Of a stretch of 64,000 bases of DNA, positions 25,866 to 28,175 are shown piece after piece (position 1 is the stretch's first letter; each line of letters begins with the position of its first letter). Origin of the DNA: Erythrobacteraceae bacterium E2-1 Yellow Sea. GTDB taxonomy: Bacteria > Pseudomonadota > Alphaproteobacteria > Sphingomonadales > Sphingomonadaceae. The DNA is taken from NCBI GenBank assembly GCA_014983025.1, contig JADCLP010000001.1:992001-1056000 (forward strand). Direction: 5' to 3'. Position numbers and translations under genes: made by a program. The notes under the pieces are model-generated. The model saw nothing but the letters and a program-made list of their open reading frames with translations. It made no database searches and had not been told where the DNA came from.

Positions 25866-25890
25866 AGCCAAGCACTGCCAGAAGGCAATT

Positions 25891-25926
25891 TGCCTAAATT
25901 TTGGCAATTGTATACTTGACAAAGCA
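25891..25926 (+). repeat. Left terminal inverted repeat of the IS1595 element
   Basis: TGCCTAAATTTT, GGCAATTGTATAC, TTGACAAAGCA reading inward. It matches the reverse complement of 28038-28074 with three substitutions in the compared inner part and one indel in the palindromic outer part. A GGCAATT just outside may belong to the end. Confidence 0.8.
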
Positions 25927-25950
25927 AGGGTTATTTGGCATTAAACTGCT

Positions 25951-26922
25951 ATGGAAAACGCAGTCGATATCTTTGCCCCTCGCTTCCAATCTGAAGATGC
26001 AGCCCGTGAGCACCTTGAGGCGCTTCATTGGGCAGATGGTCCTGTGTGCCCTCATTGCGGTTCACTCAATGCCAAGCGCCTGCCCCCTCAAAAGGGCCGC
26101 AAGACAAAGACACACCCCGAAGGCGTGATCCGCAAGGGCGTTATTCAATGCAATGACTGTCGCCAGCAATATACCGTGACAGTCGGTACTGTGTTCGAGT
26201 CCTCTAAAGTGCCTCTCAACAAATGGCTTCTGGCCAACCACCTGCTGTGTGCCTCAAAGAAGGGCATCAGCGGTCACCAGATGGCCCGTATGCTGGGCGT
26301 TACCTACAAGACCGCATGGTTCATGATGCATCGCATTCGCGAAGCCATGGTCGAAACAGATAACGAACCCATGGGCGGACTTGGCAAATTTGTCGAAGCT
26401 GACGAAACCTATGTCGGCGGCAAGGTCAAGAACCGTCACAAGCACTTGCGCACTGGCAGCGGAACCGGCCTGCACGTTAAACAACCCGTTGTCTCACTGG
26501 TCGAGCGTGACGGTAAGGTCCGCTCATTCCATGTTGCGAACGTCAACGCCAACACCTTGCGTCACGTTCTGGTTACCAACGTGGATCGCTACAGCTACCT
26601 CATGACCGACGAACACAGCGGCTATAAGGCCGTTGGCAAAGAGTTTGGTAAGCATGGCGTCGTCAAGCACTCGCTTGGCGAGTACGCTCGCAGCAAGCAC
26701 ATTCACTCAAACACCGTTGAAAACTTCTTCTCGATCCTCAAGCGCGGCATCATCGGTGTCTATCACCATGTCAGCGAAGCCCATCTTCGCCGCTACATCA
26801 CCGAGTTCGACTTCCGTTATAACACCCGCAAGTTGACCGACTTCGAACGTGCCGACGAAAGCCTCAAGGGCATTGCTGGCAAGCGCCTGACCTATCGGCG
26901 GACTAGCACAGTCGCAGCCTGA
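25951..26922 (+). CDS. IS1595-family transposase (ISXO2-like)
   Basis: A 323-aa DDE-type transposase. It has an N-terminal zinc ribbon (C33-x2-C36 and C67-x2-C70) and the KWLLANHLLCASKKGISG helix-turn-helix region. Catalytic residues fit the ISXO2 domain: Asp151 in EADETYVGGK, Asp220 in TDEHSGY, and the Asn254/Glu257 region in HSNTVENFFSILKRG. The family tail HLRRYITEFDFRYN is intact. The frame is uninterrupted, so the enzyme is probably active. It lies 25 bases inside the left end. Confidence 0.96.
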   Translation: MENAVDIFAPRFQSEDAAREHLEALHWADGPVCPHCGSLNAKRLPPQKGRKTKTHPEGVIRKGVIQCNDCRQQYTVTVGTVFESSKVPLNKWLLANHLLCASKKGISGHQMARMLGVTYKTAWFMMHRIREAMVETDNEPMGGLGKFVEADETYVGGKVKNRHKHLRTGSGTGLHVKQPVVSLVERDGKVRSFHVANVNANTLRHVLVTNVDRYSYLMTDEHSGYKAVGKEFGKHGVVKHSLGEYARSKHIHSNTVENFFSILKRGIIGVYHHVSEAHLRRYITEFDFRYNTRKLTDFERADESLKGIAGKRLTYRRTSTVAA

Positions 26923-26923
26923 A

Positions 26924-27013
26924 AGGCTTAAGCCTCCCCCAAGGAAGGGGGAGAGGCGTAGGCGCTGGACTCGATCATAATCCGATGTAATTTCTCCCCT
27001 TCAGGGGGAATCG
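26924..27013 (+). promoter_or_regulatory. Putative RNA switch / attenuator in front of the first passenger gene
   Basis: Right after the transposase stop comes AGGCTTAAGCCT (26924-26935), then four mutually complementary runs: 1, TCCCCC (26935-26940); 2, GAAGGGGGAGA (26944-26954); 3, TCTCCCCTTC (26993-27002); 4, GGGGGA (27004-27009). Run 4 is the ribosome-binding site of the gene at 27014. Pairing 1:2 with 3:4 would hide the site; pairing 2:3 would free it. The 1:2 hairpin may also act as the transposase terminator. Structure inferred by eye. Confidence 0.4.
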
Positions 27014-27313
27014 ATGGCCATCCAAGACCGAGACACGGCGTTTAAGCAGTTCGACACAATGGGCGTAGATCACGTTCGTCTGCAATATGGCGGGCCACCA
27101 CCGGAAGGGGCCGGTGTAAACCTCAAAATGATCTATTCTTGGGCGAAGCAGTGGCTCGCTAAGTTCGACGAAGCCGAACGCCTCTCAGGCATCGAGGATA
27201 AGGAAGACGCTAAGCGCATTGCTCGCAGCGCAAAGAACGCCGCATGGATCGCCGCAATTGCGGCTACGATTGCTGCAATTGCCGCTGTTGTGGCCATAGT
27301 TACTTCCTCTTAG
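27014..27313 (+). CDS. IS passenger: small C-terminally anchored membrane protein
   Basis: A 99-aa protein of unknown function. The soluble N-terminal 45 residues are followed by an amphipathic helix rich in Glu/Lys/Arg (about 47-74) and a single membrane segment (about 76-97, alternating Ala and Ile). GGGGGAA before ATG 27014 is a strong ribosome-binding site, lying inside a hairpin. It lies within the IS1595 element and plays no evident part in transposition. Similar small helix-plus-anchor proteins are, from memory, seen as passengers in related elements. Confidence 0.75.
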   Translation: MAIQDRDTAFKQFDTMGVDHVRLQYGGPPPEGAGVNLKMIYSWAKQWLAKFDEAERLSGIEDKEDAKRIARSAKNAAWIAAIAATIAAIAAVVAIVTSS

Positions 27314-27422
27314 GTTTGCGCCGCCTCTGCTCACTATCCTGTTGCGGCATGTGCGGCTTCGGCGGTGTCTTCAGCATCCGCTTGAGCACTTCATCTTCTT
27401 TCTTTTGATCGGTTTTTGACAT
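27300..27422 (-). CDS. IS passenger: 40-aa basic protein with LKRMLKTPPKPH motif
   Basis: A small reading frame on the minus strand: ATG at 27422, TAA at 27300-27302, 40 codons. The product is very polar (start MSKTDQKKEDEVLKRML, then KTPPKPHMPQQDSEQ, then a basic RRRKPKRK end). The LKRMLxTPPKPH core is one I recall as recurring in short hypothetical proteins of proteobacteria, which supports a real gene. Its ATG overlaps the ATG of the divergent gene at 27421 by two bases, and its 3' end overlaps the last codons of the 99-aa gene. The function is unknown. Confidence 0.6.
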   Translation of the reverse strand: MSKTDQKKEDEVLKRMLKTPPKPHMPQQDSEQRRRKPKRK

Positions 27423-27963
27423 GGCAGGTTACTACGGTCTCTTTCTCGGCGAGGATGCGCCAGAACTGGCAAGGGCATTAGGCGACATGATCCTAGCATG
27501 GACTAATGCTGAAGAACGCCAGGCGTTCGCATTTGCTGCAATGTTAGACCTGAACCCTGATACCGCAATCGTCCTTTATCAGAAATTCTCAAACTTTCGC
27601 AGTCGTACCCAATCGCTCTACTCTCTGATTGACCTGCATCCTGATTACGAGCCCTGCCGGAAGCCAATCGAAAAAATCAGCGGCTTAAGCATGACACGCA
27701 ATCGCTATGTTCACTGCACCTATCTTCAGGACGAAGATAATCCGCAGGACATTCGCTCAGTCGATTACAGCCAGATCGAAAACACTCCCAAGCGAAGCCT
27801 GCCCGTCAAAGCGGCAGACATAAAGAACCACGCAAAGGCCGTTCTAATAAAAGCGGATGAGCTTAAAGACGCCCTGTGGGGAATACCTCAGTATAAAGTC
27901 TGGTTAGAAACCTATCTTCCAAATTGGATGCCAGACCAAGATCACCCAGACACTCAGCCATAA
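27421..27963 (+). CDS. IS passenger: alpha-helical protein with HEPN-like R-N-x3-H motif
   Basis: A 180-aa hypothetical protein. Its first 100 residues look all-helical (about 15-42, 46-72 and 77-92) and end in TRNRYVHCTYL, with Arg93-Asn94-x3-His98. That is the catalytic R-x4-6-H signature of HEPN ribonucleases placed at the end of the third helix, as in that fold. The remainder is a Lys-rich helix and a Trp-containing tail. HEPN assignment is a motif-level inference. An internal ATG at 27487 (MILAWTNAEE) has a better ribosome-binding site (AAGGGCATTAGG) and is an alternative start. Confidence 0.7.
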   Translation: MAGYYGLFLGEDAPELARALGDMILAWTNAEERQAFAFAAMLDLNPDTAIVLYQKFSNFRSRTQSLYSLIDLHPDYEPCRKPIEKISGLSMTRNRYVHCTYLQDEDNPQDIRSVDYSQIENTPKRSLPVKAADIKNHAKAVLIKADELKDALWGIPQYKVWLETYLPNWMPDQDHPDTQP

Positions 27964-28048
27964 CCTCGCGCCCCGCCTCTAATTGAGCGCGGGTGAGTAC
28001 CAGCCTGTCACGCACCGAATCACTACCACTTTCAGCCTGCTTTGTCAT
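27863..28048 (-). CDS. Possible small gene at the right end of the IS element
   Basis: A 61-codon frame starting inside the right inverted repeat and overlapping the 3' end of the HEPN-like gene on the opposite strand. The product is an acidic amphipathic helix-like sequence (RLVLTRAQLEAGREVMAE). No homology is recognised. Evidence is only an open frame with plausible codon use, so it may be spurious. Confidence 0.25.
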   Translation of the reverse strand: MTKQAESGSDSVRDRLVLTRAQLEAGREVMAECLGDLGLASNLEDRFLTRLYTEVFPTGRL

Positions 28049-28074
28049 GTATACTATTGCCTAAATTTTAGGCA
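28038..28074 (-). repeat. Right terminal inverted repeat of the IS1595 element
   Basis: Reverse complement reads TGCCTAAAATTTAGGCAAT then AGTATACATGACAAAGCA, matching the left end 25891-25926. The next base outside is 28075, 119 bases before the sigma-54-like promoter of glnB. Confidence 0.8.
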
Positions 28075-28175
28075 GCACCCGTCTGCCATTTGGGCAGCAA
28101 GCTGAAGCACGACATTTTCTTGCCAATATACGGCTTTTGGCGAATGGCTCTTGCGCCCGTGGTACGATGCTCTAA

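What the first reader, a model, noticed from the sequence alone, without database searches (positions are those of the whole stretch)
27421..27963. HEPN-like ribonuclease candidate inside the transposon
Arg93-Asn94-x3-His98 at the end of a three-helix region matches the HEPN catalytic motif, common in toxins and abortive-infection RNases. Encoded beside a membrane-anchored small protein and an antisense-overlapping 40-aa basic protein, it could be the effector of a new toxin-antitoxin or exclusion system carried by an insertion sequence.
Basis: inference. Interest (0 to 1): 0.65.

Follow-up and report, generated by a model that had tools for sequence, protein, structure and literature searches.

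The report
Swappable HEPN cargo of IS1595 transposons
A small jumping gene carries a probable RNA-cutting (HEPN) enzyme in a slot whose contents are swapped between related elements, usually start-codon to start-codon with the same tiny antisense gene, which suggests that simple insertion sequences keep interchangeable toxin-like weapons.

Summary
The ORF is real. It lies inside an IS1595-family element (25903-28061, 2159 bp, inverted repeats, 8-bp target duplication TAAATTTT). R93-N94-x3-H98 is kept in all six examined homologues that were found by sequence alone. An AlphaFold model from ten sequences puts it at the end of the helix 74-97, as in HEPN RNases, but confidence is middling and fold searches are inconclusive. 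HEPN membership is probable; RNase activity is untested.

The larger finding is the slot. In relatives, the gene whose ATG overlaps the ATG of a conserved antisense micro-gene ("a40", 27300-27422) carries R[NDH]xxxH in 20 of 30 non-redundant cases, against 10 of 145 background ORFs. Other cargo in the wider IS family resembles PIN, PemK, SocA/Panacea, methylase and, weakly, HNH proteins. Transposases 80-90% identical can carry unrelated cargo. a40 is under protein-level selection and, in the genomes searched, sits almost only in IS1595 elements. It accompanies non-HEPN cargo too, so it is no HEPN-specific antitoxin.

Most likely: exchangeable RNase-type effector cargo, perhaps restrained by the constant antisense gene.

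The parts
25895..25902 (.). left target-site duplication TAAATTTT
25903..25926 (+). left terminal inverted repeat (GGCAATTGTATACTTGACAAAGCA)
25951..26922 (+). IS1595-family DDE transposase, 323 aa
   Evidence: Pfam PF12762 3.2e-38, PF12760 2.9e-9; NCBIfam NF033547 2.4e-59
27014..27313 (+). slot 1: 99-aa ORF with hydrophobic C-terminus; no convincing relatives; slot varies between elements
27300..27422 (-). a40: constant antisense micro-gene (40 aa, DEVLKRMLxTPPKPH core); its ATG overlaps the ATG of the cargo gene (CATG)
27421..27963 (+). slot 2 cargo: 180-aa HEPN-like protein
27511..27513 (+). E31, conserved acidic residue upstream of the motif (E or D in 10 of 10 rows of A1 and of A4)
27697..27714 (+). 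R93-N94-R-Y-V-H98, HEPN R[NDH]xxxH motif
27863..28048 (-). 61-aa antisense ORF starting in the right inverted repeat; similar small ORFs sit there in a number of relatives (10 of 25 by a loose pattern, window included)
28038..28061 (-). right terminal inverted repeat
28062..28069 (.). right target-site duplication TAAATTTT

Best explanation
The protein is the exchangeable cargo of an IS1595-family insertion sequence. It is most likely a HEPN-superfamily, metal-independent RNase: R93 and H98 form the active site, with N94 and the upstream acidic residue (E31) assisting. It most likely acts as a toxin or abortive-infection type effector that cuts host or invader RNA, to the benefit of the element (addiction, or defence of the host cell). 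The element has a slot for such cargo, bounded upstream by the constant antisense micro-gene a40, whose start codon shares bases with the cargo's start codon, and downstream by a small antisense ORF at the right inverted repeat. Shown: IS boundaries, slot anatomy, constancy and coding of a40, cargo exchange, enrichment of the HEPN motif, conservation of R/N/H. Inferred: HEPN fold and RNase chemistry (about 0.8), toxic or defensive role (about 0.5), restraint of cargo expression by a40 or its transcript (about 0.3).
For: R/N/H kept in 6 of 6 examined homologues found by sequence only. R93 and H98 invariant in A1 (10 rows), A4 (10 rows, window plus viral-contig IS cargo) and A5 (28 rows); rows of all three were partly chosen with the motif in view. 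AlphaFold with A4: pLDDT 63, ten-residue means 74-91 over residues 21-90 and 66 over 91-100, motif at the end of helix 74-97. hhalign of A5 with a DUF4145-type IS cargo pair: E 7e-4, motif in register, probability 26 against 0.2 for the reversed profile and at most 0.3 for ten shuffles. a40-paired cargo with R[NDH]xxxH: 20 of 30 (genomes 14 of 21, viral contigs 6 of 9) against 10 of 145 background ORFs, Fisher p 5e-12. Cargo of more distant relatives, mostly without a40, includes PIN, PemK, SocA/Panacea and D12 methylase matches above Pfam cut-off; PIN/VapC genes lie beside IS1595 transposases in two named plasmids. Cargo exchange.
Against: No significant Pfam, PADLOC, NCBIfam or PDB-sequence match for the protein itself. 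Foldseek finds nothing; the HEPN domain of sacsin at Z 6.6 lies within the noise for helical bundles. Profile comparison with an ApeA-type pair is at noise level, and so, about, is that with a second cargo pair, one member of which (L074) has a weak HEPN hit. The conserved acidic residue lies in the first long helix of the model, whereas the 2013 survey puts it in helix 2. 14 of 26 places matching profile A1 in the order showed no IS1595 link. 10 of the 30 a40-paired cargoes lack the motif. a40 was not detected in 8 of 42 IS1595 loci. No functional data; no promoter recognisable for either gene.
Confidence: 0.5

Rival explanations
1. A classical two-gene toxin-antitoxin module: HEPN toxin with the 99-aa or the 40-aa protein as its dedicated antitoxin.
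For: Small genes flank the HEPN gene; a HEPN-MNT pair is known in a Tn3-family transposon (PMC7157771); cargo of other IS1595 elements includes TA-type toxins.
Against: a40 stays while the cargo changes to non-HEPN proteins; slot-1 genes pair with different slot-2 genes (one small ORF family with four different slot-2 genes in L042, L043, L047, L065; a GIY-YIG-like ORF with HEPN in L044 and a weakly HNH-like protein in L069); no good match to the 99-aa ORF in the other IS loci held.
Confidence: 0.15
2. A HEPN-fold protein without toxicity that serves transposition (for example controlling transposase mRNA) rather than defence or addiction.
For: It sits between transposase and right end in the same orientation; no evident antitoxin; HEPN domains can lose the motif (PMC3710099).
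Against: Elements with near-identical transposase can carry unrelated cargo (90% identical pair L074/L077), so no particular cargo is needed; the motif is kept across very divergent sequences.
Confidence: 0.15
3. Accidental cargo: host genes captured between the ends without benefit to the element.
For: IS1595 elements with passenger genes (tIS) are known (PMC5704250); some slots hold proteins of no evident kind; HEPN relatives also occur outside such elements.
Against: The same motif class fills two thirds of a40-paired slots in two separately collected sets, and the start-codon overlap is exact in 26 of 38 distinct a40 hits.
Confidence: 0.1
4. The RNxxxH motif is coincidental and the protein has an unrelated helical fold.
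For: No confident fold match.
Against: Conservation in homologues found by sequence alone and motif enrichment; residue shuffles reach at most 7 of 33 against 23 observed.
Confidence: 0.1

Closest known systems
HEPN superfamily RNases (Anantharaman et al. 2013, PMC3710099; passages read)
   Same: Rx4-6H motif with polar residue after R, conserved upstream acidic residue, mainly helical, motif at the end of a helix
   Different: Window protein has no significant match in Pfam, PADLOC or NCBIfam; fold not confidently matched; no fused domain seen, no MNT partner
Toxin-antitoxin passengers of Tn3-family transposons (PMC7157771, 2020; passages read)
   Same: Transposon family with repeated, independent acquisition of mostly RNase-type toxins, HEPN among them
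   Different: There true toxin-antitoxin pairs, HEPN in one case; here an IS1595 element, HEPN-type in most a40-paired slots, no cognate antitoxin found, constant antisense micro-gene
IS1595-family elements with passenger genes (tIS), e.g. MTnSag1/tISSag10, tISCpe8 (PMC5704250, passages read; Siguier et al. 2009 cited there, not read)
   Same: IS1595-family transposase with passenger genes
   Different: Named there as mobilisable elements (tISCpe8 a lincomycin-resistance element by its cited title); an a40 micro-gene or HEPN-dominated slot is not mentioned in the passages seen
AbiF of Clostridioides difficile (PMC12373285; passages read, some from the abstract)
   Same: Solitary HEPN-like protein with an RN-type motif on mobile DNA, no protein antitoxin
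   Different: AbiF is neutralised by a structured non-coding RNA; no Rfam family was matched in this element

Membership tests
HEPN superfamily | Rx4-6H motif, residue after R polar (N, D or H) | tested here: met
   R93-N94-x3-H98; 6 of 6 examined sequence-found homologues keep R, N, H; definition from PMC3710099
HEPN superfamily | conserved acidic residue in the N-terminal part, near the motif in space | tested here: inconclusive
   E/D at position 31 in 10 of 10 rows of A1 and A4, but it lies in the first long helix of the model and distance to the motif was not measured
HEPN superfamily | four-helix core with the motif at the end of helix 3 | tested here: inconclusive
   Model pLDDT 63, pTM 0.56; helices 14-42, 46-53, 59-72, 74-97, 131-137, 145-165; motif at 93-98
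HEPN superfamily | structural similarity to solved HEPN domains | tested here: inconclusive
   VIA-align Z 6.6 to sacsin HEPN (3o10_C, 108 aligned, rmsd 3.8), rank 3, within helical noise
HEPN superfamily | profile similarity to known HEPN families | tested here: inconclusive
   A5 against DUF4145-type pair E 7e-4, prob 26; against ApeA-type pair noise; one relative hits HEPN_Apea at E 0.012, below cut-off
HEPN superfamily | metal-independent RNase activity | not testable with these tools
   needs biochemistry
IS1595 family | DDE_Tnp_IS1595 transposase | tested here: met
IS1595 family | terminal inverted repeats and 8-bp target duplication (the length 8 for this family is recalled) | tested here: met
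   TAAATTTT both sides; 21 of 25 elements have a perfect 8-bp duplication at the best-fitting GG/CC tips
Type II toxin-antitoxin pair | adjacent antitoxin gene that travels with its toxin | tested here: not met
   a40 constant across unrelated cargo; slot-1 genes not tied to slot-2 genes
HEPN-MNT (type VII) toxin-antitoxin | neighbouring MNT nucleotidyltransferase | tested here: not met
   no nucleotidyltransferase domain among the five ORFs of the element scanned with Pfam
Known anti-phage defence systems | match to PADLOC models | tested here: not met
   0 for the window protein; weak hits in 1 of 28 A5 members each (best PDC-S31 3.5e-4; Cas13-ApeA 0.023, RTasHEPN 0.043)

The most novel reading that the evidence does not exclude
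A clade of IS1595 insertion sequences has evolved a universal effector slot: any toxin-like gene placed downstream of the constant micro-gene a40 has its start codon overlapped by a40, so that a40 (protein, antisense transcript or both) restrains every incoming cargo without a cognate antitoxin. The element could thus swap weapons freely. That would be a passenger-independent antitoxin or safety catch, a kind of control not mentioned for transposons in the passages I read.
Probability: 0.2. Interest if true: 0.85.

Novelty: new variant of a known kind. Interest (0 to 1): 0.6.

Why it matters
Insertion sequences are generally regarded as carrying little beyond transposition genes. Here a simple IS clade appears to keep a standard slot for effectors, most often HEPN-like, and can swap them while its transposase hardly changes. 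If the cargo is toxic or protective, these elements would be small mobile carriers of defence or addiction genes that annotation misses: in the two named a40-bearing records seen, the cargo is a 'hypothetical protein' and a40 is not annotated. The constant overlapping micro-gene makes a direct question testable: can one small gene keep any toxin in check?

Tried and rejected
Rejected: cognate TA pair (slot genes do not co-vary); AbiF-like RNA antitoxin (no Rfam match; unknown RNAs are not excluded); a promoter-based account of a40/cargo regulation (no promoter above chance; -10 boxes after the TTGAC of the right repeat in 1 of 21, of the left in 6 of 21); a general preference of the IS for palindromic targets (mean score 4.1 in 21 targets against 3.6 in 500 control sites).

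Led nowhere: the single genome-contig hit L002 is spurious (the matched frame holds a stop and lies within an ABC-transporter gene region); viral-contig searches with single proteins or rhizobial relatives; single-sequence fold (pLDDT 41); Foldseek against PDB, best E 1.2, no HEPN entry among the 50 rows shown of 104; PDB sequence searches with A1, A3, A5; PHROGs; Pfam with A3. hhalign of A1 against A3 is circular, because both hold L005 and L006; it is not used. PF18739 was found in 1 of 142 genomes of the class sample and PF05168 in 1 of 41, so only a two-sequence ApeA profile was made. A broader paper search gave nothing used here.

Corrections: coordinates printed are one base too low. My notebook says 17 of 23 a40 viral loci hold a transposase; the count is 16. 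One search stopped with an error after the cargo table and shuffles were printed; the background was redone. The 20-of-30 count was tallied by hand from the rows and entered by name; rows dropped: window (query), L109 (fetched for its HEPN match), a second frame of the same L060 gene.

Full report
WHAT IS THERE. The ORF at 27421-27963 encodes 180 aa with R93-N94-R-Y-V-H98. It lies in an IS1595-family element: transposase 25951-26922 (PF12762 3.2e-38; NF033547 2.4e-59), inverted repeats with tips at 25903 and 28061, and a perfect 8-bp target duplication TAAATTTT. The element is 2159 bp and sits between a semialdehyde-dehydrogenase gene and a P-II (glnB-type) gene. Its order is: left repeat; transposase (+); a 99-aa ORF with hydrophobic C-terminus (+); a 40-aa ORF, here called a40 (-); the HEPN-like gene (+); a 61-aa ORF (-) that starts in the right repeat; right repeat. 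The ATG of a40 (27422-27420) and that of the HEPN-like gene (27421-27423) share bases (CATG). The own genome has one copy of this protein and a second IS1595 element, 54% identical in transposase, on another contig.

IS IT A HEPN PROTEIN? By itself it matches nothing significant in Pfam, PADLOC or PDB sequences, and NCBIfam gives one irrelevant weak row. Homologues found with the sequence alone: 2 other genomes among 396 of the order and 12 plasmid records, of which I examined 4; all 6 examined keep R, N and H. In alignment A1 (10 rows) W27, R93 and H98 are invariant and N94 is kept in at least 9. In A4, the window protein with 9 IS cargo proteins from viral contigs, G21, R93 and H98 are invariant and E31 is kept in 9. 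In A5 (28 rows) R93 and H98 are invariant. Many rows of these alignments were chosen with the motif in view, so they alone prove little. AlphaFold on the single sequence failed (pLDDT 41); with A4 it gave pLDDT 63, pTM 0.56, with ten-residue means of 74-91 over residues 21-90 and 66 over 91-100, and placed the motif at the end of helix 74-97, which agrees with the 2013 HEPN survey (end of helix 3; PMC3710099, passages read). VIA-align ranks the sacsin HEPN domain third (Z 6.6, 108 aligned), within the noise expected for helical bundles. hhalign of A5 against a pair of DUF4145-type cargo proteins gives E 7e-4 and probability 26 with the motifs in register, against 0.2 for the reversed profile and at most 0.3 for ten column shuffles; against an ApeA-type pair (0.3) and a second cargo pair (1.8) it is at or near noise level. 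One of the DUF4145-type pair reaches the Pfam cut-off (6.4e-5), the other misses it (2.4e-4); the survey names DUF4145 as a HEPN family. I therefore take HEPN membership as probable (about 0.8), not proven.

THE SLOT. A search of 396 genomes of the order found matches to the window transposase in 132. I fetched 40 stretches from this list, mostly from its top, plus the G293 element. Plausible inverted repeats bound 35 of these 42 loci (window included), leaving 0.85-2.5 kb beyond the transposase. 21 of 25 elements have a perfect 8-bp duplication at the best-fitting tips. The cargo is highly varied: many divergent proteins of about 170-300 aa with R[ND]xxxH; and, in more distant relatives mostly without a40, PIN, PemK, SocA/Panacea and D12 methylase matches above Pfam cut-off, with HNH (slot 2) and GIY-YIG (slot 1) matches below cut-off in nearer ones. 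Transposase and cargo often do not track each other: L074 and L077 have 90% identical transposases and unrelated cargo; the window and L042 have 80% identical transposases while their cargo aligns over only 86 residues at 21%; L063 and L069 have only 54% identical transposases but 55% identical cargo over 272 residues. There are counter-examples: L053 and L066 (84% transposase) share a related HEPN cargo (40% over 207 residues). Cargo is thus exchanged, not in every step.

THE CONSTANT MICRO-GENE. a40-like ORFs (core DEVLKRMLxTPPKPH) were found in 34 of the 42 IS1595 loci searched (tblastn E up to 0.1, the weakest less sure). Of the eight without, seven have transposases at most 48% identical to the window's and one (L068) 56%. 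Over 35 copies the mean nucleotide entropy by codon position in the a40 frame is 0.60, 0.59 and 1.40 bits, so it is selected as a protein. Its ATG overlaps the cargo ATG exactly in 26 of 38 distinct hits. In 41 genomes (own and relatives) the a40 profile hit the own genome (two places, both IS1595 elements) and G346 (one, IS1595), plus one weak chance-like row. In ten chosen genomes, nine had hits, each in an IS1595 element with a transposase except one in G148, where a40 and a HEPN protein stand together without a detectable transposase. A separate DNA-pattern scan of viral contigs for the a40 core gave 23 loci, 16 of them with an IS1595 transposase inside the fetched stretch; for the other seven the fetched stretch shows none. 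In Sphingobium sp. TomTYG64 (AP027328.1) the cargo BDX77261.1 has RDLLAH, an unannotated a40 lies head to head with it, and a truncated IS1595 transposase follows. In Mesorhizobium sp. AR02 (NZ_CP080533.1) an a40-like ORF overlaps the start of a cargo without the motif, WP_258589806.1.

HOW COMMON ARE HEPN-LIKE CARGOES? Taking cargo mechanically as the frame whose ATG overlaps the ATG of an a40-profile match, one search gave 33 rows, 23 with R[NDH]xxxH; residue shuffles gave a mean of 1.9 and a maximum of 7. After removing the window, L109 (fetched for its HEPN match) and a duplicate frame, it is 20 of 30: 14 of 21 from genomes, 6 of 9 from viral contigs. Background ORFs of 150-300 aa away from the elements, real genes or not: 10 of 145. 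Fisher p is 5e-12; related cargo sequences make the true significance lower. Conversely, of 26 places in the order that match profile A1, 12 are tied to IS1595 by transposase, fragment or repeat; 8 of these 12 are A1 rows themselves, so this is partly circular, and the other 14 show that HEPN relatives also live elsewhere or in decayed elements.

MECHANISM. I propose an RNase-type effector that helps the element persist, by addiction or by protecting the host cell. Evidence for toxicity is by analogy only: HEPN RNases of toxin and abortive-infection systems, and the toxin flavour of some alternative cargo, including PIN/VapC genes beside IS1595 transposases in Roseomonas marmotae and Methylobacterium oryzae plasmids (no a40 overlap was seen there). 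A dedicated antitoxin is not apparent: a40 accompanies various cargo and the upstream slot varies independently. The simplest role for a40 that fits its position is control of the cargo start, by protein, by antisense pairing of the two 5' ends, or by transcription interference; a role in transposition fits equally well. No promoter was recognisable.

COMPARISON. Tn3-family transposons carry true TA pairs, with a HEPN-MNT pair in one case (PMC7157771, passages). IS1595 elements with passenger genes (tIS) are known (PMC5704250, passages); the one IS1595 passage seen in a Ralstonia survey says nothing of cargo (PMC7371123, passages). Searches of the held open library for IS1595 with passenger gene (15 papers), with toxin-antitoxin (31, 15 listed) and with HEPN (2), and for HEPN with insertion sequence, toxin and transposase (15), showed no title or abstract opening describing this association. 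Of these papers I opened only PMC7371123, PMC5704250 and PMC7157771, for passages; most subscription papers are not held, and Siguier et al. 2009 was not read. I therefore rate it a new variant of a known kind.

Noticed in passing
window 25880-25910 and 28057-28075; L042, L044: Three elements with about 80% identical transposases, in genomes of two genera, sit at the same target core TGCC-TAAATTTT-[AG]GGCA; in the window and G346 it lies beside a P-II gene with the element in opposite orientation, which suggests recurrent use of one site.
   Followed up: partly
L060 / L122 (G185): A double element: HNH-like cargo with an a40 and right repeat, followed by a second a40 + HEPN unit and a second right repeat.
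   Followed up: partly
L010 4683 and the HEPN gene beside it (G033): A HEPN cargo with an IS1595-type repeat but no transposase match in the 5.9-kb contig, between genes that look moeA-like and lexA-like by eye: possibly a non-autonomous element.
   Followed up: partly
window 27863-28048 and right ends of relatives: Small antisense ORFs of a 'TPEMIEAG' type (10 of 25 by a loose pattern, window included) and, by eye, a GACAGGCCGG-like motif about 50 bp from the right tip recur.
   Followed up: partly
L043 1877-2943 (oriented), L201 5105-5875: A second recurrent-looking cargo type (about 250 aa; by eye 'NLRxxLDY...NKHN') without the HEPN motif, overlapping a40 in the same way.
   Followed up: no
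L005, L006, L007, L008 (Sulfitobacter, Shinella, Ensifer, Neorhizobium plasmids): Relatives of the HEPN protein (RN[RK]Y[NS]H) not seen as IS cargo; in the two annotated records (Sulfitobacter, Shinella) the gene directly follows a response-regulator gene.
   Followed up: no
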